A DNA stretch of 54,493 nucleotides from assembly GCF_019104945.1 (NCBI RefSeq), contig NZ_JAHRWW010000039.1:1-54493 (forward strand). The letters run 5' to 3'. Source of the DNA: Thermomonas sp. GTDB lineage: Bacteria > Pseudomonadota > Gammaproteobacteria > Xanthomonadales > Xanthomonadaceae. Shown piece after piece: positions 35,982-54,465 of this stretch. The position numbers were made by a program, and so were the translations under genes. Below the pieces are notes generated by a model. The model saw only the letters and a program-made list of their open reading frames with translations. It had not been told where the DNA came from and did not search any database. How positions within the stretch are numbered: the first letter of the stretch is position 1; every line of letters begins with the position of its first letter.

Positions 35982-36006
35982 TCAAGCCGAACACTCGGGG
36001 ATTTTC

Positions 36007-37283: not shown

Positions 37284-37381
37284 GATTGATCCACACAAAG
37301 AGCTGCGTATCAGGGTACTGCATCGCCCTTTATTTCCGCAGCTTGGTTAGACTGGTATATCCCCATTAATGAGGCTGCAAA

Positions 37382-37864: not shown

Positions 37865-37870
37865 TACGGG

Positions 37871-39439
37871 TTAATTTTCACACTCGCCAATGCGGGTGAA
37901 GGCGAAGTCTTCGTAGTCCGAGCTCCAATCCCCATCGGGGTTGATCTTGGCCATATGCAGCTGGCGCGTTGCGCCTTCGCCGCTGAAATTTAACCAAGGG
38001 TTTTCATCCACGCCTTCATCATCCCAGACGAGGACATAACGCCCATCGAGCGTGCTAATGCGGCCGTGCATTTTGGGCGATTTTGCCGAGCGCCATTCCA
38101 CCTGCTGCCCCACCGGGCAAATGCGCACCTCACCAAACCACGGGTCGCGCCAAACGCCTAGCCACTGCTGCATGTGCGCGGGCTTCACCGGCTTGCGTTT
38201 GGCGATGTCGGGTATGTTTTGCTGAGCCGCAGAGGCTTTCGAGGCCGGCTTCTCCAGCGCATCGGCATAGCCATTCACACCTAACGATTGCTCCGGTGCG
38301 GTAAACAGTTTTAATAACACCTCGCCCAGCACGGTGCGCGCCCGGTCGCCTTCTCCATTGATCATAAAAACAAAGCCCGATTTCTGATCGGGGAGCAGCA
38401 TCATCATGGAATACATGCCGCCAAGCGTACCGGTATGTGAAACCGTCCATTGGCCATCTACATCAGCCAGACGAAAGCCGTAGGCATAGGCGTAGAAATG
38501 GGTGTTATCCCACTGCTTTTTCTGCTGCGAGATGGGCATGATCGTACGCGCCTTCCACAGCTCGGCGCGCTGGCGATCCTCTAGCCAAACCTTTTGCGCT
38601 TCGGTGGGCGCTAAAAAATTATTCGCCCATACCAGCATGTCGCTTAGGGTGCAGCGGATCCCGCCTGCTGGAGCGGAGGCGAGCGCGGCGACTTCGGCAT
38701 CATCTGCGCGAGTAGGCACCACCTTGCCCGCGTCCATGCCGTGCGGCTGAGCGACGCTTCCTGCGTCCTTCAGCGCGAACGCGCCTACCTTGCAGCCGTG
38801 CAGCGCGAGTGGTGTAAATACCTCACGCTGCATCAACGTTTCGTAAGAAGCACCACCCACCGCTTCCGCCACCATGCCCGCCACCACATACAGTAGGTTG
38901 TCGTAGGCGTAGCCAGAGCGAAACTCATACGCGGGCTTAAAGTAACGCAAACCATGCAGAATATCGCTGCGCGTGAAGAGATTGGGTTCCGGCCAGAACA
39001 TCAGGTCCCCGCCGCCCTGCGGCAGGCCGCTGTTGTGCACCAGCAGATCGCTGACGGTCATATGCTGGGTGACCCAAGGGTCGTGCATCGCAAAATCGGG
39101 AAGATGCTTGATGACCGGATCATCCCAGCGCAGCTTTCCTTGTTGCACCAGCCGCGCCAACAGAGAGGCGGTCATGGCTTTGCTATTGGATGCAATTTTG
39201 AACAAGGTATTTTCGGTAATGGGGTCGCCACTGCCATACACCGTTTCACCATAGCCTTTGGCAAACACAATGCGGCCGTTTTCAATCACCCCCACGGCGA
39301 TACCGGGCAGTTGATAGCGCTTAATCGTTGCTTGGACAGCCGCATCAATGCTTGCAACCTCTGGCCGATGCGGCGGAGTGTGTGCCGCAGCCGATCCGAT
39401 CACGCAGAACAACGCTGCGGTAAGTAGAGACGTTTTCAT
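37871..39439 (-). CDS. Exported serine hydrolase, class C beta-lactamase fold
   Basis: A 522-aa exported protein (signal MKTSLLTAALFCVIGSAAA). It has the penicillin-binding motifs: SxxK at Ser84-Lys87 (IASNSKAM), YxN in SGYAYDNLLY and a KTG-like HTG in VSHTGTLGGM. The C-terminal 140 residues look like a DUF3471-type lipocalin-like domain. This is the D-aminopeptidase/esterase/PBP4* group rather than a true AmpC. The ATG at 39439 overlaps the lysA stop (ATGA), so it is coupled to lysA. Its product may trim D-amino-acid peptides, which is inference. Confidence 0.85.
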   Translation of the reverse strand: MKTSLLTAALFCVIGSAAAHTPPHRPEVASIDAAVQATIKRYQLPGIAVGVIENGRIVFAKGYGETVYGSGDPITENTLFKIASNSKAMTASLLARLVQQGKLRWDDPVIKHLPDFAMHDPWVTQHMTVSDLLVHNSGLPQGGGDLMFWPEPNLFTRSDILHGLRYFKPAYEFRSGYAYDNLLYVVAGMVAEAVGGASYETLMQREVFTPLALHGCKVGAFALKDAGSVAQPHGMDAGKVVPTRADDAEVAALASAPAGGIRCTLSDMLVWANNFLAPTEAQKVWLEDRQRAELWKARTIMPISQQKKQWDNTHFYAYAYGFRLADVDGQWTVSHTGTLGGMYSMMMLLPDQKSGFVFMINGEGDRARTVLGEVLLKLFTAPEQSLGVNGYADALEKPASKASAAQQNIPDIAKRKPVKPAHMQQWLGVWRDPWFGEVRICPVGQQVEWRSAKSPKMHGRISTLDGRYVLVWDDEGVDENPWLNFSGEGATRQLHMAKINPDGDWSSDYEDFAFTRIGECEN

Positions 39440-40695
39440 AGCGCGTTCCAATGGTTTGCTGGCTGTTCTTCCGCAAGAATGGCGTCTAGCGTTTGGCGGC
39501 GGCGAATCACCGCATAGCGCTCATCATCAACAAGCACTTCTGCAGGCAGCGGCCGCGAGTTATAGGTCGAGGCCATCGACATGCCATACGCGCCCGCGCT
39601 CATTACCGCGACAAGATCGCCAGCCTCACAGCGCGGCAGCGTGCGCTGCACGGCAAAAGTATCGCCGGTTTCACATACAGGCCCAACCACGTCGTATGCC
39701 AGCGCCTCACGCGTGGCATTGCTGCCCACGCGAACAATGTCGTGCCATGCTTCATACAAACTAGGCCGCAGCAGATCATTCATGGCGGCATCCAGCACCA
39801 AAAAGCGTCGCGCCTGCCCCTGTTTTTCTAAAATGACCCGCGACAGCAGCACGCCAGATTCCGCCACCAGCCAGCGCCCAGGTTCCACCAAAATGCGCCC
39901 AGTAAAGCCGTGCAGCGCTTCTCTAATTGCCTGTGCATAGTCGTGCGCATCGGGGGCTTGCTCGCCATCGCGATAGCGAACGCCCAAGCCGCCGCCCACA
40001 TCAATACTGGCGATCGTATGCCCAGCGGATTCTAACGATTTCCAAAAACCCGCCATGCGGGCCAAGGCTTCTCGCACGGGCGCAAGATCAAGCAGCTGCG
40101 AACCGATGTGCATATGCAGCCCATCAAGCTGCACATTCGGCCACTGATCTTTGCCTTCAAACCATGTGCGTGCTTCATCCATGCTCACGCCAAATTTATT
40201 CTCAGCTTTCCCTGTAGAAATTTTGGCGTGCGTTTTTGCATCCACATCGGGGTTGATCCGTACCGAAGCGCGCGCCATTTCGCCGCGCGTCGCCGCAATG
40301 CGTTGGATCGCCTCTAGCTCAGCGCGCGACTCTAAATTAAACCGGCCAATGCCTGCATCCAATGCGAGACTAATTTCCGCATCGGTTTTGCCAACACCTG
40401 AGAACACGATATTTTCTGCCGCGATACCTGCACGCAAGGCGCGTTGCAATTCCCCTCCAGAAACAATATCCGCCCCCGCACCTTCTTTTGCGATCAACTG
40501 CAAGATTGCGCCATTGCCATTGGCTTTGACTGCATAGCGAATGCCCGCATCCAAGCCATTAAGCGCTTCGCGCAGCGACCGCAGTTTATTGAGGATGGCC
40601 GGCGCGGAATACACATACAACGGTGTTCCCTCTTGGCTTGCCAGCTTGTGAAGATCCAATGCAGGAAATAGTTCGGCGGTTGCGTCGTTCAACAT
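39436..40695 (-). CDS. lysA: Diaminopimelate decarboxylase
   Basis: Decarboxylates meso-DAP to L-lysine with PLP. The 419-aa protein has the Schiff-base Lys57 in RYAVKANGNG, HIGSQLLDL, the GGG phosphate loop IDVGGGLGVRY, EPGRWLVAESG and the C-terminal AGAYGMSMASTYNSRP. All are typical of a single-function LysA. The ATG at 40695 has GAGG upstream. A terminator for the TonB receptor gene lies 15 bp before it, so lysA needs its own promoter in the 40-80 bp upstream. The serine hydrolase is coupled downstream. Confidence 0.95.
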   Translation of the reverse strand: MLNDATAELFPALDLHKLASQEGTPLYVYSAPAILNKLRSLREALNGLDAGIRYAVKANGNGAILQLIAKEGAGADIVSGGELQRALRAGIAAENIVFSGVGKTDAEISLALDAGIGRFNLESRAELEAIQRIAATRGEMARASVRINPDVDAKTHAKISTGKAENKFGVSMDEARTWFEGKDQWPNVQLDGLHMHIGSQLLDLAPVREALARMAGFWKSLESAGHTIASIDVGGGLGVRYRDGEQAPDAHDYAQAIREALHGFTGRILVEPGRWLVAESGVLLSRVILEKQGQARRFLVLDAAMNDLLRPSLYEAWHDIVRVGSNATREALAYDVVGPVCETGDTFAVQRTLPRCEAGDLVAVMSAGAYGMSMASTYNSRPLPAEVLVDDERYAVIRRRQTLDAILAEEQPANHWNAL

Positions 40696-40705
40696 GGGGG
40701 AGCCT

Positions 40706-40741
40706 CAAATAAAAAGAGGCGGCCTAAAATTTCAGGCCGCC
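40706..40741 (-). terminator. Intrinsic terminator of the TonB-dependent receptor gene
   Basis: The inverted repeat GGCGGCCT (40718-40725) / AGGCCGCC (40734-40741) is followed on the minus strand by a T-rich tail, TCTTTTTATTT. It lies 41 bp after the receptor stop and before lysA. Confidence 0.85.
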
Positions 40742-40782
40742 GTCAAGGGGTACAACAGCACGGGAGGAACGTACAACAACGA

Positions 40783-43700
40783 TTAGAAGTTATAGGTCAA
40801 CACCAACTGCGCCGAGCGCGGCGCCGTCCAATTGGAGCCTTCACCAAAGGTTTCACGATACACCCCAGGGGTGACCTCATAGCGTGTGCGAACGCGTACT
40901 TCGGTCTGCTGATTGAGCAGGTTGAACACCGAGAAACGCACCTTCAGATCTACGTCCGGCACCGGCAGCGTCCATGTGACGCTTGCACCTAGATCGTATG
41001 TCCAAGGCATACGACCAAATGCCCCTAGCTCGCTGTATTGATAGGTGCGCTGCGCATAAGGCGCTGTGCAATTACTCACACAAATCCAGCCCGAACCGCC
41101 GCCGCTAAATTCGCCGGAAGAACCTGCCGCCCGGTTATCGCCCGGCCAGTAGGTGCCGTATGCGGTAATCGGCCCACCAGAAAGCACGGTCAACGTTGAG
41201 CCAAACGACCACATATCGTTCAACTTATAGCTACCGCGCAGCTTGACCTGATGACGGTGATCGTTAAACAGCACACCATAGCGCTCGTTCACCGCTGGGT
41301 GGTCGTAGTACTGCACCATGCCGGTGTCGTTATAACCGGTATCCGAATTCACCGGGCCTTCGAAGTTACCGGTGGACTTCGACCACAGATAGCTGGCATT
41401 GAATGCCCACTTACCATCCCAAGCACGGTCAATCTGGAACTCAACCGCCTTATATTCGCGCTTCGGTCGCTTGTAACCAATAATTTCACCATTGGTTTTC
41501 TTATAACCATCCACGCTGGTATCCAGCTCAACCCAGCCGCCTTGACCATTGCCCGTATCGTCACACCACAGCGTATTTTTCTCACCCGGGTTGATGATCG
41601 GCCAGTTGAAACCAGAAGGACAGTTGGCCGCCGTGGTGATGCGCGTATCTTCAATCGTACGCGTCATCCGGCGATAAGTGGCATTGACACCCCACGACCA
41701 CGCCTCGTCGATCGCACGCTCATAGCCAAGGATGGCTTCATCCTGAAACACCGCCTTCAGATCTTTCGGGAAGATACCGCGCAGATCATCGCCGCCGGTA
41801 TTCATACTGGTATCGGTGGGGCCAATTTGTGTGCCAACTTTCGGCGTCAAATAGGTGGCGCCCGTTTCCGGATTGGTGGCCTGTTCCCAACCTAAGAGGT
41901 TGTAGAAGCTGTACTCATCCACCATGCCGCCTGCAAACGAGGTGCTGATGATATTGGTCACCGGCAGGTAGTAGCGCCCCAAGTTACCGTAGAGCTTGGT
42001 GGTGCCATCGCCCTTCATATCCCAGCTGAAGCCGCCGCGCGGTGCAACAAGGTTTTTAATATCGATAAACGCACCGCCACTCGCGGTTCTATTCTGAAAG
42101 CTATCAATACGAACACCCAAGTTCAGCAAGAAGCTATCGGTGATGTTCCAGTTATCTTCGAGGTAATACGCGTTGTTGACGGTTTCAAACGAACCCCCAG
42201 ACACCTTATGGCGCTTGCGGATCACATCGGTATTTTGGCTGAGAAACACGCCCGAACCATCCACAATTTCCACGCCAGCGTTGAGTGTCATCGCCAGCAA
42301 CGCATCGCCACCCGGCCCCGGATAGAACAAGCTTTGATCGGTGGTGAGCTTTTCTTGATCCAAACCAAAGCGCAGCAAGTGGTTGCCAAGGCTCCATTCA
42401 AAATCCATGCGGCCAATCTTGCGCGTGTTATTCATCTTGGTAACCGAGCTGCCCGTTGGGTGGCAGCCAACGGTTTTACCCACTAGAGCGGCGGCACCGG
42501 CATAACTTGCGTCCACCGAAATCGAGTTGCACGCATCATCCAGTAGCGAGTGGGTATAAGCATTACGGTCGTTCTCACCGTACATCGCCTTGGCTACAAA
42601 GTTTTCGCCAAAATGACCGGTATAGGTTAGCGTCCAGTTCTTACCGCCAAAATCGTTGAGCGTGTCGCCGCCGTAGCTGCCCTTCGCTGCACTGTCCCAG
42701 TCATAGGCATAGGCAGACGCAGTTGAGTCACCCTTATCGGAGAACGCCATAAACGACAGCGCGTGGTTATCGGTGAGATTCCAATCTAGGCGCGTGCCCC
42801 AGAAGCCATTACTCGACTCGACTTCGCTCCAATCAGAACCCGTGTTATCGGTGTTGCCGGAGCTGAAATCCTGATTTTCAAACATCGCAAAGAAGAACAG
42901 GCGATCTTTCAAAATAGGGCCCGATGCCCAGACGTTGGTTTTTGTCAGGCTCGAACGGTCATGGCTACCACGCACATAAGTAGTGGGCGCTGTGGGATGC
43001 GTGAATACATGATCGTCGGTCTTGGCATTGAACGCAGCGGGCTCAAACGTCAGCTCGGCACCACCGTGAAACTCATTGCCGCCCGAGCGCACCGAGGCGT
43101 TGATGACGCCGCCTGTGCTGCGCCCAAATTCCACCGAATAGCCGCCGGTTTTGACTTGGAACTGATCGAAGAACGCGAACGGCGCACTGGAGTTGCCCTG
43201 ACGGCGGTAGAAGTCCGTCACGTTCAGTCCGTTAATGTAAATCTGATTTTCAGCAACGGAAGAACCACCAAACGAGATACCGCCAAACGACGAATTACCC
43301 TTGATGACGCCCGGCGCTAGCAATGCAACCGACCCCATGCTTTGCGCCACTGGGAGCCGCGCAAGTTCTTGGCGATCAATGACGGTGGCTGTGCCGGTTG
43401 AATGCACGTCCACATGATTGACCACACCACTCCCAATCACCTGCACAGCATCTAGATTGGTGAGCCCTGCATCACTGCGCACATTGACGGTAGTGGTGCT
43501 GCCCAGATCCACAGTGAAGGCCACCGGCGCAGCGGCGCCAGCGGTGAGCTTGTAGTTACCCGGCGGCAACTGGCCAATACGGTAAGTACCGTCTTTATTG
43601 ACGGTGGCGGTTCGGCTTAACCCTGTTGCGGTGTTGACCACCACAACGGTATCGCCTGCGCTGGCGCGTCCGGCGACACCACCCGTTGCGGTTTGTGCCA

Positions 43701-43785
43701 ATGCTGGCGCGGCAACCAAAGATGATAGGCACAAGCCCAGCGCCGCAGTGAGCATGGACTTACGCATAGAACGGCTACAACGCAT
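40783..43785 (-). CDS. Oar-like TonB-dependent outer-membrane receptor
   Basis: A 1000-aa outer-membrane protein. The signal peptide (to about residue 31, ending APALA) is followed by a carboxypeptidase-regulatory-like domain (35-85, DGTYRIGQLPPGNYKLTAG), then a plug domain (to about 260) and a long beta-barrel ending LVLTYNF with the usual terminal Phe. This is the Oar/TonB-receptor type of Xanthomonadales. The ATG at 43785 has GGGGAG; the frame is open 126 codons further but that stretch is non-coding. The ligand is unknown. It is divergent from the NlpC/P60 gene, which suggests muropeptides; oligopeptides are the alternative. Confidence 0.88.
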   Translation of the reverse strand: MRCSRSMRKSMLTAALGLCLSSLVAAPALAQTATGGVAGRASAGDTVVVVNTATGLSRTATVNKDGTYRIGQLPPGNYKLTAGAAAPVAFTVDLGSTTTVNVRSDAGLTNLDAVQVIGSGVVNHVDVHSTGTATVIDRQELARLPVAQSMGSVALLAPGVIKGNSSFGGISFGGSSVAENQIYINGLNVTDFYRRQGNSSAPFAFFDQFQVKTGGYSVEFGRSTGGVINASVRSGGNEFHGGAELTFEPAAFNAKTDDHVFTHPTAPTTYVRGSHDRSSLTKTNVWASGPILKDRLFFFAMFENQDFSSGNTDNTGSDWSEVESSNGFWGTRLDWNLTDNHALSFMAFSDKGDSTASAYAYDWDSAAKGSYGGDTLNDFGGKNWTLTYTGHFGENFVAKAMYGENDRNAYTHSLLDDACNSISVDASYAGAAALVGKTVGCHPTGSSVTKMNNTRKIGRMDFEWSLGNHLLRFGLDQEKLTTDQSLFYPGPGGDALLAMTLNAGVEIVDGSGVFLSQNTDVIRKRHKVSGGSFETVNNAYYLEDNWNITDSFLLNLGVRIDSFQNRTASGGAFIDIKNLVAPRGGFSWDMKGDGTTKLYGNLGRYYLPVTNIISTSFAGGMVDEYSFYNLLGWEQATNPETGATYLTPKVGTQIGPTDTSMNTGGDDLRGIFPKDLKAVFQDEAILGYERAIDEAWSWGVNATYRRMTRTIEDTRITTAANCPSGFNWPIINPGEKNTLWCDDTGNGQGGWVELDTSVDGYKKTNGEIIGYKRPKREYKAVEFQIDRAWDGKWAFNASYLWSKSTGNFEGPVNSDTGYNDTGMVQYYDHPAVNERYGVLFNDHRHQVKLRGSYKLNDMWSFGSTLTVLSGGPITAYGTYWPGDNRAAGSSGEFSGGGSGWICVSNCTAPYAQRTYQYSELGAFGRMPWTYDLGASVTWTLPVPDVDLKVRFSVFNLLNQQTEVRVRTRYEVTPGVYRETFGEGSNWTAPRSAQLVLTYNF

Positions 43786-43885
43786 AACGACTCCCCAAAT
43801 GGTTGGCTTCAATATGTGAACTGTCCGATGCCCGTCCTCACCTTGACGCGCTCCGCCAACAGCGGGCAGGCATTCGTTAAAGAGA

Positions 43886-43914
43886 TGTGTACCACGGCAA
43901 ATAAGGCTGGTCAA
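43886..43914 (-). promoter_or_regulatory. Putative leftward promoter of the TonB receptor
   Basis: On the minus strand, TTGACC (43909-43914) and TACACA (43886-43891) are separated by exactly 17 bp. The leader to the ATG at 43785 would be about 95 nt. The -35 overlaps the -35 proposed for the opposite direction. Confidence 0.4.
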
Positions 43915-43946
43915 TAATTTATTCTTAGCGTATATATGTGAAGAAT
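43908..43946 (+). promoter_or_regulatory. Putative rightward promoter with 26-bp palindromic operator
   Basis: TGGTCA (43908-43913), 17 bp, then TATATA (43931-43936) would start the NlpC/P60-epimerase operon near 43943. A 26-bp imperfect palindrome spans 43921-43946: outer arms ATTCTT and AAGAAT, with 10 of 13 base pairs matched and TATATA at the centre. A protein bound here would cover the rightward -10. It is a natural candidate operator for the RpiR-type regulator encoded in the operon. Confidence 0.45.
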
Positions 43947-44019
43947 CACCTATTACGCAACCACTGCAGCCAGCCCTTAAAATGACGACAACATCCCATT
44001 CCACTGCCGTGGTAAAGAC

Positions 44020-45447
44020 ATGAATCCGCCGTATCGACACCATCGTTATCGCCATGCCGCACCGCTGCTTGCTGCTGCGCTCGCCATGGCATTGCATGTG
44101 CTGCCCGCTGCGGCGCAAAACGCACCGCTGCCAGTTCCAGCAAGTGGGGTGATTGGCATGCAAGACGCCTATCTAACACCCGAATTTTGGATCCACCGCC
44201 AGCAGGCTCCAGACGCCATTTTGTTGCCGCGCAGCACGATCAATGCGCGCAATACGCGGCTGCTGCAACAAGATCCTTCCATGCATAACATCGCGGCATT
44301 TCCAGCCACGCTCTCTCGGGCCAAGGTGGAAGCATGGATCACCAACCTCGCCGCACCGCCCAGCAAACCGCTTTGGGATGAAGCCAGCAAACCCATCAGC
44401 AAAACCACGCTGGATGCGGTTATGGCCAACCGCGCCCTTGCTGCAATTCCGGCAACCCAGCCCACGCGCTACGGCCTGGCCATCCACCGCACCGATCAGC
44501 GCGCGTTTCCAACCTCATTCCGGGTATTTTCAACGCAGGGCGAAACCGATATTGACCGCTTTCAAGAAAGCGCCCTATTTCCCGGTGACGCAGTGGTGAT
44601 TGCCCATACCAGCCGCGACGGCAAATGGCTGTTTGTTGTAAGCGAACGCTACGCTGCATGGGTTGAAACCAGCACGATTGCGGAAGGCACACGCGACGCC
44701 GTTTTAGGCTATGCCACACGCTTACCCTACCGCGTCATTACCGGCGCAAAACCCAGCACCGTATTCACTCGCGAGCAGCCGCAGCTGTCCGAACTGCAAC
44801 TTGATATGGGCACGCGTGTACCGTTGGCTAGCGCAGCACCTGATCAACCCGTTAACGGGCAACACCCGTACACCGCATGGATAGTTGACCTACCGCTACG
44901 CGGCACCAATGGCAAACTGCAATTTGCCCCTGCATTACTACCGCGCATTGCCGACAGCAGCGCCGATTATCTGCCACTGACACACAGCACTATCGTGCGT
45001 CAAGCCTTCAAATTTTTAGGCGAACGTTACGGCTGGGGGCATTCGTACAACGCGCGTGATTGCAGCGGTTTTGTCTCCGACGTGTACCGCAGCATGGGCG
45101 TGCAGATGCCGCGCAATACCAGTGCGCAGGCTGTGAGCCCTGCTTTTAAGCGCACTGCGTTCACGGCCAATAGCAGCCGCGCCGAACGCATGGCCGCAGT
45201 CGCTGCGCTCGATGTGGGCGATCTCATCTACATCCCCGGCCACGTCATGATGTATATCGGCACGATCGACGGCCAGCCTTGGGTCATTCACGACACCAAC
45301 GGCGGCAGCTATCTCGGCCAAGACGGCAAGCTGCACAGCATGCATTTGAACGGCGTTTCCGTCACACCGCTCCTTCCTTTGCGCTTCAACAAAACAACCG
45401 ATTACGTGGATCGCATCACCAATATCGTGCGAGTAACCCAAGAATGA
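44020..45447 (+). CDS. Exported NlpC/P60 endopeptidase with SH3 domains (YkfC-like)
   Basis: A 475-aa cell-wall peptidase with a signal peptide (1-33). Residues 150-310 form SH3-like bacterial domains (WLFVVSERYAAWV; YTAWIVDLPLRG). The C-terminal NlpC/P60 domain has Cys348 (RDCSGFVSDVYRSMG), His408 (PGHVMMYIG) and His424 (VIHDTNGG). The layout matches YkfC-type gamma-D-glutamyl-diaminopimelate endopeptidases that release L-Ala-D-Glu from murein peptides. The next gene, coupled by ATGA, is the epimerase for exactly that dipeptide. The peptidase acts in the periplasm, unlike cytoplasmic YkfC of Bacillus. Confidence 0.88.
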   Translation: MNPPYRHHRYRHAAPLLAAALAMALHVLPAAAQNAPLPVPASGVIGMQDAYLTPEFWIHRQQAPDAILLPRSTINARNTRLLQQDPSMHNIAAFPATLSRAKVEAWITNLAAPPSKPLWDEASKPISKTTLDAVMANRALAAIPATQPTRYGLAIHRTDQRAFPTSFRVFSTQGETDIDRFQESALFPGDAVVIAHTSRDGKWLFVVSERYAAWVETSTIAEGTRDAVLGYATRLPYRVITGAKPSTVFTREQPQLSELQLDMGTRVPLASAAPDQPVNGQHPYTAWIVDLPLRGTNGKLQFAPALLPRIADSSADYLPLTHSTIVRQAFKFLGERYGWGHSYNARDCSGFVSDVYRSMGVQMPRNTSAQAVSPAFKRTAFTANSSRAERMAAVAALDVGDLIYIPGHVMMYIGTIDGQPWVIHDTNGGSYLGQDGKLHSMHLNGVSVTPLLPLRFNKTTDYVDRITNIVRVTQE

Positions 45448-46550
45448 AAATTACTGATATCCGCTTTGGCATGCTGCGCGTGCCGCTGAAAACGCCCTTC
45501 AAAACCGCGCTACGCACCGTCAACCAAGTGGAAGACGTCGTGGTGACCATCCATACCGATACCGGCAACACCGGCTACGGCAGCGCCCCGGCCACCGCCG
45601 TGATTACGGGCGACACCCACGGCTCAATCGTTGAAGCCGTGCGCCTATACATTGCACCGCGCCTGATCGGGCAAGAGATCGCCAACCTCAACCACCTCAC
45701 CTACTTGGTGCAAGGTGCAATGGAGAAAAACACCAGCGCCAAAGCCGCTGTAGAAATTGCGCTATACGACCTTTGGGGCCAGCTGTATAAGGCCCCCGTC
45801 TATCAGCTACTGGGCGGCGGCGAACCGGCCATTACCACCGACATCACCATTAGCGTGGACTACATCGACAAGATGGTGGCCGACGCATTAGACGCCGTTA
45901 ATCGCGGTTTTGAATCGCTCAAAATCAAAGTAGGTAAGGATATTGGCCTGGATATTGAACGTACCAAGGCCATTCATGCCGCGGTGGAAGGCCGCGCCCT
46001 GCTGCGTCTTGACGCCAACCAAGGCTGGACCGCTAAGCAGGCCGTATATGCCCTGCAAACGTTGGAAGATGCGGGGGTGAAACTGGAGCTGGTGGAACAA
46101 CCGGTAAAAGCGCACGACCTTGCCGGGATGCGCTATGTCACTGAGCGCGTACACACCCCAGTAATGGCCGATGAAAGCGTGTTCGGCCCGCGCGAAGTGG
46201 TGGAATTGATCCGCATGCGCGCTGCCGATATCGTCAATATCAAGCTGATGAAAACCGGCGGCATCTCGAATGCAGTGAAGCTCGCCGACATCTGCAGCCT
46301 CTATGGGATTGATTGCATGATCGGCTGTATGTTGGAATCTAGTATTGGGGTGGCCGCTGCCGTGCACTTGGCCGTGGCAAAATCGGACGTTATCAGCAAG
46401 GTGGATTTGGACGGGCCTTCACTATGCCAATACGATCCGGTTGCCAGTGGCGTTATTTTCAACGAATCGGAGATCAGCGTGACCAATGCACCGGGCTTAG
46501 GCATTCGCAGTATTGATGGGTTGACGCCTGTCCAAGAACTGGCCGCCTGA
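45444..46550 (+). CDS. ykfB: L-Ala-D/L-Glu epimerase
   Basis: A cytoplasmic enolase-superfamily enzyme (368 aa) that converts L-Ala-D-Glu to L-Ala-L-Glu, so that the dipeptide can be hydrolysed. Catalytic Lys160 and Lys162 (KIK), metal ligands Asp190, Glu218 and Asp243, Lys267 on the other face and the dipeptide-amine motif Asp321-x-Asp323 (DLDG) are all present. Arg24, thought to bind the Glu side chain in the Bacillus enzyme, is also at 24. The start at 45444 overlaps the NlpC/P60 stop (ATGA). No peptidase for the product is adjacent. Confidence 0.92.
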   Translation: MKITDIRFGMLRVPLKTPFKTALRTVNQVEDVVVTIHTDTGNTGYGSAPATAVITGDTHGSIVEAVRLYIAPRLIGQEIANLNHLTYLVQGAMEKNTSAKAAVEIALYDLWGQLYKAPVYQLLGGGEPAITTDITISVDYIDKMVADALDAVNRGFESLKIKVGKDIGLDIERTKAIHAAVEGRALLRLDANQGWTAKQAVYALQTLEDAGVKLELVEQPVKAHDLAGMRYVTERVHTPVMADESVFGPREVVELIRMRAADIVNIKLMKTGGISNAVKLADICSLYGIDCMIGCMLESSIGVAAAVHLAVAKSDVISKVDLDGPSLCQYDPVASGVIFNESEISVTNAPGLGIRSIDGLTPVQELAA

Positions 46551-46559
46551 GGCAACCGC

Positions 46560-47405
46560 GTGACAACGGCGCTCACTAAAATTCGCTCCGAACGCGACCA
46601 GATGTCGGCCATCGAGCGCCGCATTGCCGACTTCATCATCGACAATGCTCAGCTGCTGCGCGACTACTCCTCCCAGCAACTGGCCAACGCACTGGGCATC
46701 AGCCAATCCAGCGTAGTGAAGTTTTGCCAAAAGCTGGGATTTAAGGGCTATCCCGATCTAAAGCTTGCGATCAGCGAAGCGGTAATCCGCGCGGATACAG
46801 GCGCAGCGCCCAGCCCGCCAAAAGGTGCATCGCCCACCAGTGTGCAGGGCTATGACCTATGGCTGCGCAAATCTGAGGCGGAAGAGGCCACGCGTTTAAT
46901 CAACCCTGTTGGCACGCTTGCGCAAGTGGCGTCGATGATCGGCCAAGCGCATACCGTGTTTATTATTGGCCTTGGTGAAGACGACCTGCACGCGCGCACG
47001 CTTGCGCTGCGGCTAGCGCAGCTGGGTATTTTGACGGTGCACAATTTCGACACCGCACACATGACCGCCAGCCTCTCGGCCGCCAAGCCCGATGATGTGC
47101 TGTTGGCTTTTTCTGAACATGGATTACAGCCCACGCTAAGCCAACTCGCGCGGCACATGCGCAGCCAACAGGGCAAAGTGGTGACCATCACCCGCCACAG
47201 CGCCAACGCTCTGCGCGCGCACGCCGATATTCCGCTGCTTGTTGCCGCGCACGACGACCGCCCGCAGATCGAACCGTTGCTCTACCACTCGGCCCTGCAG
47301 CACCTTTTAGATCGCCTCTTCATTCGCCTTTACGAAGCCGACGACAGCCGCCGCACGCGCCTGCAGCAGACATTGGAGCTCACCCAACGCTGGTTAGAGT
47401 CCTGA
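46560..47405 (+). CDS. RpiR/MurR-family transcription regulator
   Basis: A 281-aa regulator with an N-terminal winged HTH (about 1-78, LANALGISQSSVVKFCQKLGF) and a C-terminal SIS domain (about 115-250). GTG at 46560 is the start, with GAGG 8 nt upstream. MurR, a family member, controls MurNAc use in E. coli. In this SIS domain the phosphosugar loops are altered: GLGEDD (137-142) in place of GxGxS and FSEHG (184-188) in place of SxSG. The effector may be something other than a phosphosugar, perhaps a murein peptide. It lies inside the salvage operon. Confidence 0.88.
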   Translation: MTTALTKIRSERDQMSAIERRIADFIIDNAQLLRDYSSQQLANALGISQSSVVKFCQKLGFKGYPDLKLAISEAVIRADTGAAPSPPKGASPTSVQGYDLWLRKSEAEEATRLINPVGTLAQVASMIGQAHTVFIIGLGEDDLHARTLALRLAQLGILTVHNFDTAHMTASLSAAKPDDVLLAFSEHGLQPTLSQLARHMRSQQGKVVTITRHSANALRAHADIPLLVAAHDDRPQIEPLLYHSALQHLLDRLFIRLYEADDSRRTRLQQTLELTQRWLES

Positions 47406-47424
47406 CCTGCTCATTGGATTATTT

Positions 47425-48201
47425 ATGCCGACATATCGCTTTGCCGCTGCACTCCTTGCCATGTCCACATTAACCGCCTGTGCCCACATGCCTGCCTCTG
47501 CTTCAAGCGAAGCCTCGCACTGGGCCAATGCCGCGCAAATGGTCGTGGTGACCCCCGCCAACTGGGAGGCCACCAGTGCCACGTTGCGCCGTTTTGAGCG
47601 TCACGATCAGCACTGGCAGCAAGTGGGCAGCGCGGTTTCTGTCACGCTTGGCCGCACCGGCAGCGCTTGGGGCATGGGGCTAAATGCCACGCGTAACGAT
47701 GGCCCAGTGAAGCGTGAAGGCGACGGCAAATCCCCCGCTGGCGTGTTTGCACTAGGCAGCGCATTTGGCTACGCCGAGCGTATCGCTACTGGCCTGCACT
47801 ATCAGCCGATGACCACCAACGACTGGTGCATCGATGTTCCCGCATCCAATTATTACAACCAGATCATCGACCGTAGCGTGGTGAAAGCGCCCTACCTCGA
47901 CCAGTCCAGCGAGCCCATGCGTCGCGACCTGCACGAAAACGGCGACCAACGTTATCGCGAAGGGTTCGTGATTCAACACAATGTCGACGGCAAAGCGCGC
48001 CAAGGTGGTAGCTGCATCTTCGCGCACCTATGGAAAGCACCCGGCGAAACCACCGCGGGCTGCACGGCGATGGCACCCGAGAGCATGGACACACTACTGG
48101 CGTGGCTGGATGAAAAGCGCCACCCTGTTTTTGTCTTGCTCCCCACCCCACAATACAGCGCACTACAGGCCTCTTGGGCGCTTCCGGAGATCGCCCCATG
48201 A
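47425..48201 (+). CDS. L,D-transpeptidase (YkuD-fold) lipoprotein
   Basis: A 258-aa exported protein with lipobox TLTAC (Cys19). It resembles the COG3786 branch of the YkuD/ErfK catalytic fold: a His201 region (GGSCIFAHLWKAPG) and the nucleophile Cys213 in AGCTAM, with the NRNDGPVKREGD-like N-terminal region seen at 89-100. Such proteins form or cut L,D-peptide bonds at DAP in murein. A carboxypeptidase role is as likely as transpeptidation. It follows rpiR by 19 bp and overlaps the symporter gene by 4 bp. Confidence 0.82.
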   Translation: MPTYRFAAALLAMSTLTACAHMPASASSEASHWANAAQMVVVTPANWEATSATLRRFERHDQHWQQVGSAVSVTLGRTGSAWGMGLNATRNDGPVKREGDGKSPAGVFALGSAFGYAERIATGLHYQPMTTNDWCIDVPASNYYNQIIDRSVVKAPYLDQSSEPMRRDLHENGDQRYREGFVIQHNVDGKARQGGSCIFAHLWKAPGETTAGCTAMAPESMDTLLAWLDEKRHPVFVLLPTPQYSALQASWALPEIAP

Positions 48202-49427
48202 GCCAAACCACGCGCGTATTGAGCGGTCTTGTTGGCGGCATCGTGCTGGGCATTTTGCTGGCGTGGCAATCGCCCGCAATGGGGCTTACCGTGGCCAGCA
48301 TCGTGGAGCCGTTTGGAAAGCTTTGGCTCAATGCGCTGCAAATGACTGTGGTGCCGCTGGTATTCGCACTGGTGGTCGTGGGAATCAACCAAGCCTCTGA
48401 CGCCGCCCATTCCGGGCGCGTGGCGCGGCAGGCCATCATTAGCTTTGTCATTTTGCTCACCGCCGCTGCAACGCTTGCCGCCGTGCTGGCCCCCGCAATC
48501 CTTGGCATGCTGCAGCCCGACCCCGCCGTTGCCGCAGCGCTGCGCGGACATACCGAAGCGATCTCTGCACCTAGCGGCGGCTGGGCCGATGCGCTGGTAG
48601 CAATGGTGCCCAGTAACGCAATCTCCGCCGCCGCCAACGCGGCCATGCTGCCGTTGGTGACGTTTGCGCTGTTCTTTGGCTTTGCCCTCACTCGGCTTGA
48701 ACCCGAGCCGCGTGCGCAGGTTGTTGGGCTGCTCAAAGCCATCAGCGACGCCATGATCATCATTGTGCACTGGGTGCTCTGGGCCGCGCCGGTGGGCATC
48801 TTCGCGCTAGTGCTCGCGCTCACTGCGCGCGCCGGGCTGGGCATGCTGCAGGCACTGGGCATTTATATCCTGCTGGAATGTGCGCTGTATGTGCTGTGCG
48901 TGGTGCTGCTAATTGGTGTCGCGGTGGCTTTTGGCAAGCAGCGGCTAGGGCATTTCATGAGTGGTCTCGTGCCGGTGCAGGCGGTTGCCGCAAGCACCCA
49001 ATCGTCGCTGGCTACCCTGCCCGCCATGCTTGATAGTGCGCAAAATCGCTTGGGCATTCCCGCCCGCGTTTCGGGCTTGGTACTGCCGATGGCGGTATCG
49101 CTGTTTCGCATCACATCCCCCATCCAATACCTCGCCACTGCCTGCTTCATCGCGTGGGCGCTTGGGGTGGCGCTTACGCCCTCGCAGCTGGCCACCGGCG
49201 TGGTGCTGAGCGTTTTGGTGAGCATGGGCTCGGTGGGCCTGCCCGGTCAAGCCATTTTCCTCGCCACCAACCTACCTATCACCACCGCGATGGGCCTGCC
49301 GATTGCGCCGCTGCCGGTACTCATGGCGGTCGATGCCATCCCCGACGTGCTCGCCACCGTGGGCAACGCCACGGGCGACATGACCGTCACCACCGTGGTG
49401 GCCGCGCGCAATACCGATCAGGAATAA
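48198..49427 (+). CDS. Dicarboxylate/amino acid:cation symporter (DAACS)
   Basis: A 409-aa inner-membrane protein of the GltP/DctA family with about eight helices and two re-entrant loops. SSLATLPAML (AASTQSS loop) and the MAVSLFRITSPIQYLA and GLPGQAIFLATNLPITTAMGLP stretches are the substrate and ion sites. The family carries glutamate, aspartate or C4-dicarboxylates with Na+ or H+. The usual helix-7 NMDGT motif reads SLFRI here and is not seen, so the substrate may differ. The ATG at 48198 overlaps the previous stop. Uptake of L-Ala-D-Glu or glutamate is suggested by the operon. Confidence 0.85.
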   Translation: MSQTTRVLSGLVGGIVLGILLAWQSPAMGLTVASIVEPFGKLWLNALQMTVVPLVFALVVVGINQASDAAHSGRVARQAIISFVILLTAAATLAAVLAPAILGMLQPDPAVAAALRGHTEAISAPSGGWADALVAMVPSNAISAAANAAMLPLVTFALFFGFALTRLEPEPRAQVVGLLKAISDAMIIIVHWVLWAAPVGIFALVLALTARAGLGMLQALGIYILLECALYVLCVVLLIGVAVAFGKQRLGHFMSGLVPVQAVAASTQSSLATLPAMLDSAQNRLGIPARVSGLVLPMAVSLFRITSPIQYLATACFIAWALGVALTPSQLATGVVLSVLVSMGSVGLPGQAIFLATNLPITTAMGLPIAPLPVLMAVDAIPDVLATVGNATGDMTVTTVVAARNTDQE

Positions 49428-49450
49428 CTCGTTCCACTCGCAACAACCTC

Positions 49451-49480
49451 TTGACAACTCCCGCTGCAGTGCAGCAAAGT
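49451..49480 (+). promoter_or_regulatory. Putative thr operon promoter
   Basis: TTGACA (49451-49456) is a perfect -35. The matching -10 is poor: GCAAAG at 17 bp or CAAAGT at 18 bp. If used, transcription starts at 49486-49488, at the thrL ATG. It begins 23 bp after the symporter stop. Confidence 0.45.
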
Positions 49481-49487
49481 CGAAACT

Positions 49488-49565
49488 ATGTCCCGCCGCA
49501 TGACCACCACCACGACCATTACCACCGGTACCATTACCTCGGTGCGGTCGGTCATGCCTGGATAA
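49488..49565 (+). CDS. thrL: thr operon leader peptide
   Basis: A 25-codon open frame, ATG to TAA, whose residues 6-17 read TTTTTITTGTIT: eight Thr and two Ile in 12 codons. E. coli ThrL (21 aa) has the same Thr/Ile density. It lies 81 bp before thrA and just after TTGACA. The ribosome would stall at these codons when charged Thr or Ile tRNA is short, changing RNA folding downstream. A second ATG at codon 5 (49500) could also serve. No strong Shine-Dalgarno is present upstream. It is too short for ordinary gene callers. Confidence 0.88.
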   Translation: MSRRMTTTTTITTGTITSVRSVMPG

Positions 49566-49646
49566 ACCTTCCCAGACAACGGCCCCGCAGCGAAGCAAGC
49601 GGGGCGCAAATCCCGGTTGCCGCGAGCGGGCCCCATAGGAGCCCCA
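49566..49646 (+). promoter_or_regulatory. thr attenuator / RBS-masking region
   Basis: GCCCCGC (49582-49588) pairs with GCGGGGC (49599-49605). The same GGGGC could instead pair with GCCCC at 49630-49634, or with GCCCC at 49641-49645 directly before the thrA ATG. No U-run follows the first hairpin. The AGGAG of thrA (49637-49641) touches the last segment, so a fold there would hide the ribosome site. Competing pairings following a Thr-rich leader fit attenuation; whether control is transcriptional or translational is open. Confidence 0.6.
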
Positions 49647-52151
49647 ATGAACGCAGCACTGCAGCAGGACGATTCAGACCCATCCAAACGCACCGCACAC
49701 TGCCGAACCCATAAGTTCGGCGGCAGTTCATTGGCCGATGCTGCGCGTATTCGTCATGTTGCAGACCTGTTGATTGCCGACGACGCGGCCCAGCAAATTG
49801 CCGTGACCTCGGCCATGCAAGGCACGACCAATGCCCTGATTGCACTCAGCGAAACCGCAGCGGCGGGAGGCGACTGGAAGAGCGCGTTAGAACATGTGCG
49901 GCAGCGCCACGTCGATACTGCGCATGCCCTACTGCAGCAACCTGAAGCCATGCAGGCACGCGTCAATGCACTATGCGATGAACTAACCGAACTGCTGCAC
50001 GCCACCGCCCTGCTGCGCCAACCCGGGCGCGCGGCACTAGAGCGCGTGCAGGGAATGGGTGAAGTACTCTCTACCACCCTGCTCAACGCGCATCTGTGCG
50101 AACGCGGCCACGACTACGCGCTGCTCGACGCGCGCGACGTGCTGGTGGTCAAGCACACCGACCTTGGTGCCGTGGTGGATTGGGAAGCCAGTGCGAAGAA
50201 GCTCGCAGAATGGCGCAATCAACACCCGCAGCCACGCGTCAACGTCACCGGCTTTGTGGCCAGCGACGCAAACGGCATGCCCACGACGCTTGGCCGCAAC
50301 GGCAGCGACTATTCCGCCGCTATTTTTGCCAGTCTGTTTGATGCCGACGAACTGCATATCTGGTCCGACGTGGACGGTGTGCTCTCGGCCGACCCACGCG
50401 TGGTGCCAGAAGCGGTGCCACTTACCGCGATGAGCTATCGCGAAGCCTGCGAACTGGCGTATTTCGGTGCCAAGGTCATCCACCCGCAGACGATGACACC
50501 CGCCATCGCGCGCGGCCTGCCTATCTTGATGCGTAATACCTTCCGCCCCGAGTTCCCCGGCACGCGCATCGATGCCGAAGGCGATCGCGCCAGCACCGGC
50601 CCGGTCAAAGGCCTCACCTTAGGCAATCATCTTGCGCTGCTGTGCTTGGAAGGCACCGGTTTGATCGGCGTGCCCGGCACGGCCGAGCGCGTATTTGCGG
50701 CGTTACGCGCTGCACATGTATCGGTGGTGATGATTTCGCAAGGCTCCTCCGAACATTCCATTTGCTGTGTGGTGCACGAACAAGACGCTGCGCGTGCGCG
50801 TGAAGCGCTGCGTGAAGCCTTTGCCAATGAGATCGCCAGCGAACAAGTACACGGTGTCCGCATGGGTACCGGCATCAGTGTGCTGGCCGCCGTGGGCGAC
50901 GGCATGGCAGGCACCCCCGGTGTGGCCGCACAGATGTTCGATGCATTGGCGCGTGCACGCGTTAATATCCGTGCCATTGCGCAAGGTGCCTCCGAGCGCA
51001 ATATCTCGGTGGCCATCAGCAGCGAAGACGCCACCCGCGCACTGCGCGCCGTACACGCCTCGTTCTGGCTATCACCGCAGACCATTGCACTGGCCGTCAT
51101 TGGCCCAGGCAAAGTGGGCAGCGCCCTGCTCGATCAACTGCAAACCGCACTGCCACGCCTGCGCGCCGTACACAACATCGACCTGCGTCTGCGCGCGCTG
51201 GCCACCCGCAACAAGCTCTGGCTGCACGAACACGGCAACGACGCCGATTGGCACGCGCGCATGCAAACGCCGCCCGCCGAAGCCAATCTTGACCATCTCG
51301 CAGAGCACCTTCTCGACACCCACCTTCCGCACGCCGTCATCATCGACTGCAGCGGTAGCAATAACGTGGCCGAGCACTATCCCAAATGGTTGGCCGCCGG
51401 CATCCACGTCATCACCCCCAACAAGCAAGCGGGTGCAGGCCCGCTGCAGCGCTACGCCGACATTCGCAGCGCCTGTAAAACCAGCGGCGCGCGCTTCCGT
51501 TATGAAGCCACGGTGGGTGCTGGCTTACCCGTGATTTCCACCCTGCGCGATCTACTGGATACCGGCGATGAGCTGCTCAGCATCGAAGGCATTTTCTCTG
51601 GCACGCTTGCATGGTTGTTCAATAAATTTGACGGCAGCAAACCGTTCTCTGCACTCGTGCGCGAAGCCCACACACTGGGCTATACCGAACCCGATCCGCG
51701 TGATGACCTCTCCGGCACCGACGTTGCACGCAAGCTGGTGATCTTGGCGCGCGAATCAGGCATGCCCATCTCTTTGGATGATGTGCAGGTACAAAGCCTT
51801 GTTCCCGAGGCCTTGCGCGGTGCTGATCGCGATGCATTTATGGCGGGCCTTGAAGCACTCGACGCACCGATGCAGGCGGCGCTAAATGCCGCCAAAGCGA
51901 ACGGCTGTGTGCTGCGCTATGTCGCTTCACTTGATCACAACGGCAACGCCAGCGTGACGCTGAAAGAACTTCCCACCACACATGCGTTCGCGCATCTGCG
52001 TCTCACCGACAACTGCGTGTCGTTCACGACCCGCCGCTACTGCGATAACCCACTGGTCGTGCAAGGCCCGGGCGCTGGCCCCGAAGTTACCGCCGCAGGC
52101 GTGTTCTCCGATCTGCTGCGCCTTTGCGCCGCACTGGGGGCCAAGCTATGA
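49647..52151 (+). CDS. thrA: Bifunctional aspartate kinase/homoserine dehydrogenase I
   Basis: The fused enzyme for the first and third steps from aspartate to threonine. In 834 aa: an aspartokinase domain with KFGGSS (23-28) and the catalytic [11 protein letters not shown] loop, a central ACT region (about 320-470, with [14 protein letters not shown] and [15 protein letters not shown]) for threonine feedback, and a homoserine dehydrogenase domain with the Rossmann motif [12 protein letters not shown] (about 484-495) and [13 protein letters not shown]. The ATG at 49647 has AGGAG upstream; the frame is open ten codons earlier. It is coupled to thrB (ATGA). Confidence 0.95.
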
Positions 52152-54369: not shown

Positions 54370-54405
54370 TTTTCTACGGCAATGCGCAAAGACACATCCG
54401 ACGTT

Positions 54406-54455: not shown

Positions 54456-54465
54456 AATTGGTCAT

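What the first reader, a model, noticed from the sequence alone, without database searches (positions are those of the whole stretch)
40783..49427. Outside-in murein-peptide salvage locus
Seen: divergent TonB receptor; then secreted NlpC/P60 peptidase, L-Ala-D/L-Glu epimerase, RpiR regulator, L,D-transpeptidase-fold lipoprotein and DAACS symporter, mostly with 4-bp overlaps. Known: YkfC-type peptidases free L-Ala-D-Glu and the epimerase acts on it; E. coli and Bacillus versions work on recycled peptides in the cytoplasm and use ABC uptake. Inference: here peptide is taken in at the outer membrane, cut in the periplasm and carried by a secondary symporter, which would be a different route for feeding on foreign or own peptidoglycan.
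Basis: partly seen in the sequence, partly recalled or inferred. Interest (0 to 1): 0.75.

Follow-up and report, generated by a model that had tools for sequence, protein, structure and literature searches.

The report
Murein stem-peptide uptake and breakdown regulon
A bacterial gene cluster, conserved across many relatives and marked by a shared DNA control site, looks built to capture cell-wall peptides from outside, cut them up and turn the odd amino acids into ordinary nutrients, a route not described in the papers searched.

Summary
The window carries a divergent TonB receptor and an NlpC/P60–dipeptide epimerase–RpiR–YkuD lipoprotein–SDF carrier operon. Two of four junctions overlap by 4 bp, not most. 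In named relatives NlpC precedes the epimerase in 78 of 79 loci and a TonB receptor lies divergent in 64 of 71. The strongest new evidence is a tandem operator between receptor and operon (43912-43955). It marks 20 of 20 RpiR-bearing test loci, 17 of 17 without three that duplicate training contigs. It stays with a receptor ortholog on another contig in one relative, precedes rpiR in some Alteromonadales, and in this same genome also sits between a murein amidase and a DUF819 membrane protein. The cluster also holds a second diaminopimelate decarboxylase. So the receptor belongs to a regulon for dismantling murein stem peptides. The step 'symporter carries L-Ala-D-Glu' is not established: the SDF protein lacks the substrate arginine and cation motif, is replaced by an APC permease in 15 of 52 loci, and persists in 7 of 7 same-genus genomes without the epimerase. 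Best reading: a new variant of murein-peptide salvage, probably catabolic, carrier assignments open.

The parts
37871..39439 (-). Serine hydrolase of the penicillin-binding/class C beta-lactamase fold, exported by eye (probable DD-peptidase or D-aminopeptidase)
   Evidence: Pfam Beta-lactamase 218 bits; SNSK, YDN and HTG read by eye; hits to it or to the VanX-hydrolase fusion upstream in 40 of 70 named loci
39436..40695 (-). Second, monofunctional diaminopimelate decarboxylase (called LysA2 here)
   Evidence: TIGR01048 480 bits, cut-off 298; separate fused aspartokinase/decarboxylase on contig C46; in 10 of 16 epimerase-positive and 0 of 7 epimerase-negative same-genus genomes
40709..40741 (-). 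Intrinsic terminator between receptor and decarboxylase
   Evidence: GGCGGCCT/AGGCCGCC stem followed by TCTTTTT, read by eye
40783..43785 (-). TonB-dependent receptor with CarboxypepD_reg and Plug domains
   Evidence: Pfam; same subfamily (40% identity or more) divergent in 54 of 71 named loci, hits to either receptor query in 64 of 71
43912..43955 (.). Tandem operator: CAATAATTTATTC and GAATCACCTATTA, starts 31 bp apart; proposed RpiR site
43914..43942 (-). Sigma-70-like promoter toward the receptor (TTCACA-17-AATTAT), second hexamer inside operator site 1
   Evidence: 1 found, 0.4 expected from shuffles, so only suggestive
44020..45447 (+). c-clip/SH3/NlpC-P60 gamma-D-Glu-mDAP endopeptidase, exported by eye
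   Evidence: Pfam SH3_6 and NLPC_P60; AlphaFold mean pLDDT 87; Foldseek best 3M1U then 6SQX; C348, H408, H424 invariant in 24 sequences
45444..46550 (+). L-Ala-D/L-Glu epimerase-like enolase-superfamily enzyme
   Evidence: Best solved relative B. subtilis epimerase 1JPM, 336 bits; R24, K160, K162, D190, E218, D243, K267, D321, D323 invariant in 9 sequences
46560..47405 (+). RpiR-family regulator (HTH_6 + SIS)
   Evidence: Pfam; within 2 kb downstream in 64 of 73 named loci; operator precedes rpiR in some Alteromonadales
47425..48201 (+). YkuD-fold lipoprotein, proposed LD-carboxypeptidase
   Evidence: YkuD Pfam 23.5 bits, cut-off 23.4; H201 and C213 invariant in 25 sequences; AlphaFold mean pLDDT 84, Foldseek best is Campylobacter Pgp2 (E 2e-3, TM 0.36, weak)
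48198..49427 (+). SDF/DAACS secondary carrier of a divergent subfamily
   Evidence: Pfam SDF 256 bits; R397-equivalent is A in 66 of 68, M311-equivalent is R in 68 of 68 ortholog sequences

Best explanation
This is the core of an RpiR-controlled regulon for capturing and dismantling murein stem peptides. Shown by sequence: gene content, conserved order, a shared operator at the receptor/peptidase operon and (same genome, contig C12) between amidase and DUF819 genes, and a second diaminopimelate decarboxylase. Inferred: free or shed stem peptides cross the outer membrane through the TonB receptor; the amidase at the second locus frees peptides from MurNAc; the serine hydrolase and the YkuD lipoprotein trim terminal D-Ala; the exported NlpC/P60 enzyme cuts L-Ala-D-Glu from meso-diaminopimelate; secondary carriers (SDF or its APC substitute, plus DUF819) bring the products in; the epimerase turns L-Ala-D-Glu into L-Ala-L-Glu for ordinary peptidases, and the second decarboxylase turns meso-diaminopimelate into lysine. 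The epimerase would matter because this lineage makes D-Glu with MurL and has no detectable glutamate racemase. I expect RpiR to repress both arms until an effector from the pathway appears. Least certain: which carrier takes which product. My order for SDF is D-alanine or another neutral amino acid, then L-Ala-D-Glu, then meso-diaminopimelate; DUF819 is my first candidate for the dipeptide.
For: Order and co-occurrence in named loci with enough flank: NlpC 78 of 79, RpiR 64 of 73, YkuD 52 of 71, SDF 43 of 71, divergent TonB receptor 64 of 71 (own genome: 26 Plug domains in 2.69 Mb, about one per 104 kb). Operator: the palindrome's best match of the whole locus lies inside the divergent gap in 61 of 72 loci against 0 to 31 for 23 permuted palindromes; matrix score: window 54.3, amidase/DUF819 gap of the own genome 44.8, unlinked receptor in G027 46.8, E. 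coli pieces (51 kb) at most 12.1; site of 33 or more in 66 of 80 named loci; 20 of 20 RpiR-bearing test loci have it (17 of 17 without duplicates of training contigs), 0 of 7 SDF loci of the epimerase-less congeners; a copy precedes rpiR in some Alteromonadales. Second decarboxylase in 10 of 16 epimerase-positive and 0 of 7 negative genomes, Fisher p 0.0075. Relatives add amidase, VanX-type dipeptidase, M19 dipeptidase, S66 LD-carboxypeptidase and alanine racemase. MurL over cut-off in the own genome; no glutamate racemase match in it or in 24 congeners. No SBP_bac_5.
Against: No substrate was tested for any transporter or enzyme. SDF is kept in 7 of 7 epimerase-less same-genus genomes; in 4 of the 7 loci fetched no NlpC lies near it (the rest of those genomes was not searched for NlpC). 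A terminator separates receptor and decarboxylase, so one left-arm operon is not shown, and 6 of 16 epimerase-positive congeners have no second decarboxylase; in G011 it lies on another contig than the epimerase. The receptor subfamily differs between orders, so its ligand may not be constant. In 5 of 71 named loci neither receptor query hits within 8 kb on either side (one of them, L124, has a receptor-like ORF by eye). L156, L158 and L159 have RpiR but no site over 25. Solved relatives of the peptidase include PnpA, which acts on sugar-linked muropeptides (PMC7860986, passages), so free peptides need not be the substrate. Species are related, so counts are not independent.
Confidence: 0.72

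Rival explanations
1. Own-wall housekeeping: the cluster recovers peptides that the cell's own wall sheds into the periplasm, and the TonB receptor recaptures what leaks or serves another ligand. No feeding on foreign murein.
For: AmpG and Mpl are present, so the cell can recycle its own wall; in Rheinheimera L153 the cluster lies beside ORFs that look like mraZ/mraW/ftsI/murE/murF (by eye).
Against: Mpl can already reuse tripeptide intact; a second decarboxylase and an epimerase point to breakdown, not reuse. The operator stays with the receptor ortholog even where it is unlinked (G027). 7 of 25 same-genus genomes have no epimerase match.
Confidence: 0.3
2. The SDF protein is an ordinary aspartate/glutamate (or serine/threonine) carrier that belongs with thrABC and is only a neighbour of the murein genes.
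For: SDF lies beside thr genes in 5 of the 7 loci of epimerase-less congeners: L067, L068, L070, L071, L073. E. coli SstT, a serine/threonine carrier, also lacks the arginine.
Against: Other genera keep YkuD-SDF without thr genes; an APC permease takes the slot after YkuD in 15 of 52 loci and never together with SDF there; the acidic-side-chain arginine is absent in 68 of 68; thrABC has its own Thr/Ile-rich leader peptide.
Confidence: 0.2
3. The receptor imports something else (for example an oligopeptide or an amino-sugar compound) that only signals the presence of dead bacteria, and the peptidase operon acts in the periplasm on peptides that diffuse through porins.
For: Stem peptides are small enough for porins in principle (recalled); another receptor subfamily takes its place in Alteromonadales and some Pseudoxanthomonas; RpiR SIS domains usually bind sugar phosphates (recalled).
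Against: A TonB receptor of one or another subfamily keeps the divergent place in 64 of 71 loci, and its operator is retained where it is unlinked.
Confidence: 0.25

Closest known systems
E. coli MpaA-YcjG (AEE) and Bacillus YkfC-YkfB murein tripeptide recycling
   Same: Same two chemical steps: gamma-D-Glu-mDAP cut, then L-Ala-D-Glu epimerisation. The MpaA and YcjG roles are stated in PMC9928106 (passages); the Bacillus pair is recalled.
   Different: Here the peptidase has an export signal, no SBP_bac_5 was found, and a TonB receptor, a second decarboxylase and a shared operator are attached.
Chlamydia trachomatis YkfC with OppABCDF (PMC9928106, passages)
   Same: NlpC/P60 peptidase of murein tri- and tetrapeptide.
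   Different: Cytoplasmic peptidase behind an ABC permease; no TonB receptor in the passages seen.
DvLysin (3M1U) and PnpA of Photobacterium (6SQX; PMC7860986, passages)
   Same: Four-domain c-clip/SH3/SH3/NlpC build; [quoted passage not shown]
   Different: PnpA is described as a secreted enzyme without an uptake cluster in the passages seen. PnpA and DvLysin differ at positions E183 and Y211, which are invariant here.
Tannerella forsythia use of external peptidoglycan fragments through AmpG (PMC7670621, passages)
   Same: Scavenging of external wall fragments by a Gram-negative bacterium.
   Different: Sugar-based AmpG route; 'TonB' does not occur in that paper's main text.
TonB receptor utilisation loci (for example GlcNAc clusters of Caulobacter, PMC13046382, passages)
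   Same: Receptor, inner-membrane carrier, enzymes and regulator in one cluster.
   Different: A peptide rather than a sugar substrate is inferred here.

Membership tests
L-Ala-D/L-Glu epimerase (enolase superfamily) | MR_MLE N and C domains | tested here: met
   70 and 181 bits, over cut-offs
L-Ala-D/L-Glu epimerase (enolase superfamily) | Catalytic Lys/metal ligands and substrate R24, D321, D323 of the B. subtilis enzyme (roles recalled) | tested here: met
   Aligned to 1JPM; invariant in 9 of 9 sequences
L-Ala-D/L-Glu epimerase (enolase superfamily) | NCBIfam equivalog cut-off | tested here: inconclusive
   Best model NF041118 (named Thtga): 248 bits, cut-off 500; PRK15129 113 bits, cut-off 343
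L-Ala-D/L-Glu epimerase (enolase superfamily) | Epimerase activity on L-Ala-D/L-Glu | not testable with these tools
   Needs an assay
NlpC/P60 gamma-D-Glu-mDAP endopeptidase, DvLysin/PnpA group | c-clip, SH3 and NlpC build | tested here: met
   AlphaFold model matches 3M1U chain A over 455 columns, TM 0.71/0.78
NlpC/P60 gamma-D-Glu-mDAP endopeptidase, DvLysin/PnpA group | Cys-His-His active site | tested here: met
   C348, H408, H424 invariant in 24 of 24
YkfC proper (free N-terminal L-Ala recognised) | Glu83/Tyr118-type S2 site | tested here: inconclusive
   E183 and Y211 invariant and different in 3M1U and 6SQX, but not aligned to 3H41 itself
Opp/MppA-type ABC murein peptide recycling | SBP_bac_5 peptide-binding protein | tested here: not met
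   0 matches in own genome, 95% complete
DAACS/SDF carriers | SDF domain | tested here: met
   256 bits
Characterised acidic amino-acid DAACS carriers (GltPh, GltP) | TM8 arginine (R397) and NMDGT motif | tested here: not met
   A in 66, S in 1, C in 1 of 68; FRITSP-like in place of NMDGT
YkuD L,D-transpeptidase/LD-carboxypeptidase fold | YkuD domain with catalytic Cys/His | tested here: met
   23.5 bits at cut-off 23.4; H201 and C213 invariant in 25; their catalytic role is inferred
YkuD L,D-transpeptidase/LD-carboxypeptidase fold | Activity: carboxypeptidase or transpeptidase | not testable with these tools
   Foldseek best hit Pgp2 is weak
MurR/RpiR regulators | HTH_6 plus SIS | tested here: met
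   84 and 49 bits
MurR (MurNAc-6-P sensor) | MurR equivalog cut-off | tested here: not met
   94 bits, cut-off 408
TonB-dependent receptor | Plug and barrel | tested here: met
   Plug 37.6, OMP_b-brl_4 96.5 bits

The most novel reading that the evidence does not exclude
A TonB-dependent system for murein stem peptides: one RpiR regulon, spread over Lysobacterales and parts of Alteromonadales and Microbulbifer, couples an outer-membrane receptor, periplasmic dismantling and two non-ABC carrier families (DUF819 and an arginine-less SDF clade) whose substrates are wall products, with meso-diaminopimelate routed to lysine by its own decarboxylase. Two transporter families of unknown or mis-stated substrate would gain a function.
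Probability: 0.5. Interest if true: 0.78.

Novelty: new variant of a known kind. Interest (0 to 1): 0.64.

Why it matters
Murein peptide recycling is known mainly as a cytoplasmic route behind AmpG or Opp. A receptor-led regulon that breaks the peptide down outside the inner membrane would be a feeding route on wall debris in soil, water and predatory bacteria (Lysobacter enzymogenes carries most of the cluster, L112; what fills its SDF/APC slot was not identified). It gives testable substrates to a TonB receptor subfamily, DUF819 and a divergent SDF clade, and a defined DNA site with which to find the rest of the regulon. It would also explain why lineages that make D-Glu with the one-way enzyme MurL, and lack glutamate racemase, keep an L-Ala-D-Glu epimerase.

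Tried and rejected
Rejected: 'mostly 4-bp overlaps' (2 of 4). Rejected: a proven single left-arm operon receptor-decarboxylase-hydrolase, because of the terminator. Rejected: SDF as a plain glutamate/aspartate symporter. Considered: that SDF is only a thr-operon neighbour; set aside because other genera have it without thr genes. Void: the counts (a closure bug in my script made the loci share one feature list; redone) and the alignment (wrong strands; redone). Led nowhere: the Rfam scan of 36000-54493 gave only a chance hit. Paper searches returned no paper that I could recognise as describing this locus or regulon (I saw listings and abstract starts, and passages of PMC13046382, PMC7860986, PMC9928106, PMC5808125, PMC12671195, PMC8142540 and PMC7670621); the library is open-access only and no regulon database was consulted, so this is not proof of absence.

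Limits of the operator test. The matrix was trained on named loci; the window, L167 and L077 were not in it, but three test loci (L043, L045, L054) are the same contigs as training loci L127, L090 and L138. Without them the count is 17 of 17. Rows dropped: one search left out L052 (contig starts at NlpC) and L065 (paralogous epimerase); L058 and L059 count there as RpiR-negative with a site, although L058 has an RpiR at 34% identity, just under my 35% cut. denominators leave out loci whose contig ends too near. The Fisher test uses the 23 same-genus genomes, not all 25. The 68 SDF sequences include a few duplicate contigs.

Full report
What is there. The window is one contig (C23) of a 2.69-Mb genome, 95% complete. 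Relatives found by the epimerase are named Luteimonas, Lysobacter, Pseudoxanthomonas, Stenotrophomonas, Rhodanobacter, Dyella and the like, then Rheinheimera-type and Microbulbifer species. Contigs of same-genus genomes reappear there, by length, under titles such as 'Lysobacteraceae bacterium' and 'Lysobacterales bacterium isolate UWPOB_THERMO1'; the genus was not established. Two junctions overlap by 4 bp (NlpC/epimerase and YkuD/SDF); the other two have gaps of 9 and 19 bp. On the minus strand, beyond the receptor, lie a diaminopimelate decarboxylase and a penicillin-binding-type serine hydrolase that overlap by 4 bp. A terminator, read by eye, stands between receptor and decarboxylase, so how those two are transcribed is open.

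The parts. The peptidase has an export signal by eye, SH3_6 and NLPC_P60 domains, a confident model (mean pLDDT 87), and its best structural relatives are DvLysin (3M1U) and PnpA (6SQX), then the Bacteroides BT_1314 and BACOVA_00612 enzymes. PnpA cuts gamma-D-Glu-mDAP in sugar-linked muropeptides (PMC7860986, passages). E183 and Y211 are invariant in 24 of 24 sequences here and different in both solved relatives; they may correspond to the L-Ala site of YkfC (Glu83, Tyr118, named in PMC9928106, passages), but I could not align them to YkfC itself. The epimerase aligns over residues 1-355 with the B. subtilis enzyme and keeps the residues recalled as catalytic and substrate-binding. The YkuD protein is a lipoprotein by its LTAC box, keeps Cys213 and His201 in 25 of 25, and its model resembles, weakly, Campylobacter Pgp2 (E 2e-3, TM 0.36), an LD-carboxypeptidase (recalled). 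The SDF carrier differs from characterised acidic amino-acid carriers: of 68 ortholog sequences, the R397 position is Ala in 66, Ser in 1, Cys in 1; the M311 position of NMDGT is Arg in 68; the amine ligand D394 is kept in 68 (roles recalled). E. coli GltP, DctA and TcyP have the arginine; SstT does not.

Comparative genomics. Counting only loci with enough flank: NlpC directly upstream 78 of 79; RpiR within 2 kb downstream 64 of 73; YkuD 52 of 71; SDF 43 of 71; APC permease 16 of 70; SDF or APC 57 of 70; DUF819 upstream 19 of 75; divergent TonB receptor 64 of 71 (same subfamily 54 of 71; either strand and side 66 of 71); transglutaminase-like protein 50 of 74; second decarboxylase 23 of 70; serine hydrolase or VanX-hydrolase fusion 40 of 70; M19 dipeptidase 10 of 70; amidase 7 of 70. 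The species are related, so these are not independent. With 26 Plug domains in the own genome, about one per 104 kb, an 8-kb stretch would hold one by chance in roughly 8% of cases. In the 52 loci with YkuD and enough flank, the carrier found after it is SDF in 36, an APC amino-acid permease in 15, both in 0, neither in 1 (three APC proteins checked by Pfam). Such replacement suggests that the slot serves an amino-acid-like product. Other families seen in chosen relatives: amidase, M19 dipeptidase, transglutaminase-like protein, alanine racemase, S66 LD-carboxypeptidase, VanX-type dipeptidase fused to a serine hydrolase.

Same genus. Of 25 same-genus genomes (own included) 18 have the epimerase and 7 have no match at E 1e-3. 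All 7 have SDF; in the loci fetched, 4 have YkuD beside it and 3 a divergent NlpC about 50% identical. This speaks against SDF serving the epimerase alone. The second decarboxylase is in 10 of 16 epimerase-positive and 0 of 7 epimerase-negative genomes (23 examined, Fisher p 0.0075); in G011 it is on another contig than the epimerase. All 23 also have a second match of 35-40% identity in a long frame, taken to be the fused aspartokinase/decarboxylase; only the own copy, cut by a contig end, was tested and is over the cut-off of that model. A dedicated extra decarboxylase is the best evidence that meso-diaminopimelate is a product the cell uses.

The operator. Aligning the receptor/NlpC gap of 12 same-genus loci with the window showed a conserved core. 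It is a pair of 13-bp near-palindromes, CAATAATTTATTC and GAATCAnnTATTC, whose starts are 31 bp apart. In 61 of 72 named loci the best match to GAATAAnTTATTC in the whole locus is inside the divergent gap (65 counting ties); 23 permuted palindromes gave 0 to 31, the highest being a shifted form of the same core. A 44-bp matrix trained on named loci scores the window 54.3, the amidase/DUF819 gap on contig C12 of the own genome 44.8 (L167, 8589), and the gap in front of the receptor ortholog that lies on another contig in relative G027 46.8 (L077); 51 kb of E. coli gave at most 12.1 and one relative without the cluster (L075) 21.2. Of the 80 named loci 66 have a site of 33 or more. Extra sites of 24 or more in named loci lie, in L115 and L126, between receptor 2 and amidase (46.0 and 41.4; L115's other site, 45.4, is its amidase/NlpC gap), in L133 between two receptors (27.2), in the Alteromonadales at rpiR, and in L125 twice more (25.5 between receptors, 24.4 elsewhere). 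With a matrix that excludes Alteromonadales and Microbulbifer and allows one base of spacing, Rheinheimera-type loci still show the site before NlpC (25 to 27) and, in L132, L137, L140 and L153, a second one about 56 to 63 bp before rpiR (24 to 25); in L134 the rpiR site scores 17 and in L148 none was listed. An E. coli piece reached 19.3 in that looser scan, so these are weaker calls. In whole-genome relatives, 20 of 20 loci with RpiR have the site (17 of 17 without three that are the same contigs as training loci) and 5 of 7 without RpiR lack it; the two exceptions are L058 and L059, of which L058 has an RpiR just under my identity cut; the 7 SDF loci of epimerase-less congeners lack it. Against: among 65 named loci of the matrix set, L156, L158 and L159 have RpiR but no site over 25. 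That RpiR binds the site is inference from co-occurrence and from the copy at rpiR.

Physiology. The own genome has AmpG and Mpl, hence the means for ordinary own-wall recycling, and no SBP_bac_5 protein. It has MurL over its cut-off and no glutamate racemase at E 1e-3; none of 24 congeners has a match either, and 1 of the 60 genomes examined has one over the cut-off. MurL showed no activity from D to L (PMC5808125, passages). So D-Glu from murein peptides has no obvious way back to L-Glu except through the epimerase. DUF819 beside a murein-type peptidase has been drawn before: an M15-DUF819 pair in meningococcal genomes, without a function given to DUF819 in the passages seen (PMC12671195).

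How it most likely works, and what is shown. Shown: gene content, conservation, shared operator, second decarboxylase, carrier replacement. Inferred: ligand of the receptor, substrate of each carrier, LD-carboxypeptidase role of YkuD, repression by RpiR.

Verdict. The parts are known families; the assembly, the operator and the extra decarboxylase make a new variant of murein-peptide salvage. Interest 0.64.

Noticed in passing
window 49488-49565 (+): A short ORF MSRRMTTTTTITTGTITSVRSVMPG upstream of thrABC looks like a threonine/isoleucine attenuator leader peptide; Rfam found no leader family there.
   Followed up: partly
own genome contig C12, L167 7755-9840: Divergent N-acetylmuramoyl-L-alanine amidase lipoprotein and DUF819 membrane protein with the same tandem operator between them.
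   Followed up: yes
own genome contig C46, L168 11226-15613: A MurD-type ligase, MurL and the fused aspartokinase/diaminopimelate decarboxylase lie in a row at a contig end.
   Followed up: partly
L041 16864-18840 and other relatives: A D-Ala-D-Ala dipeptidase (Peptidase_M15) fused to a beta-lactamase-fold hydrolase lies beside the cluster in many relatives; at that place the window has ORFs that look, by eye, like a peroxiredoxin and a DnaJ-type protein.
   Followed up: partly
L063 9559-10661: The epimerase of relative G012 reads as two overlapping pieces, a possible frameshift or assembly error.
   Followed up: no
L060 and L062 (G010, G004): Two same-genus genomes carry a more divergent epimerase (68% and 58% identity) with NlpC, YkuD and SDF but without receptor or RpiR in the locus and without the operator.
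   Followed up: partly
L153 3096-18666 (Rheinheimera): The NlpC-epimerase-RpiR genes sit close to ORFs that look like the mraZ/mraW/ftsI/murE/murF cell-wall cluster (by eye).
   Followed up: no
L124 3337-7470 (Pseudidiomarina): A carrier-like ORF (by eye), a serine hydrolase and an alanine racemase precede NlpC and the epimerase.
   Followed up: no
L069, L071, L072 (epimerase-less congeners): A DUF3228 gene lies beside YkuD-SDF, divergent from a DUF819-NlpC pair.
   Followed up: no
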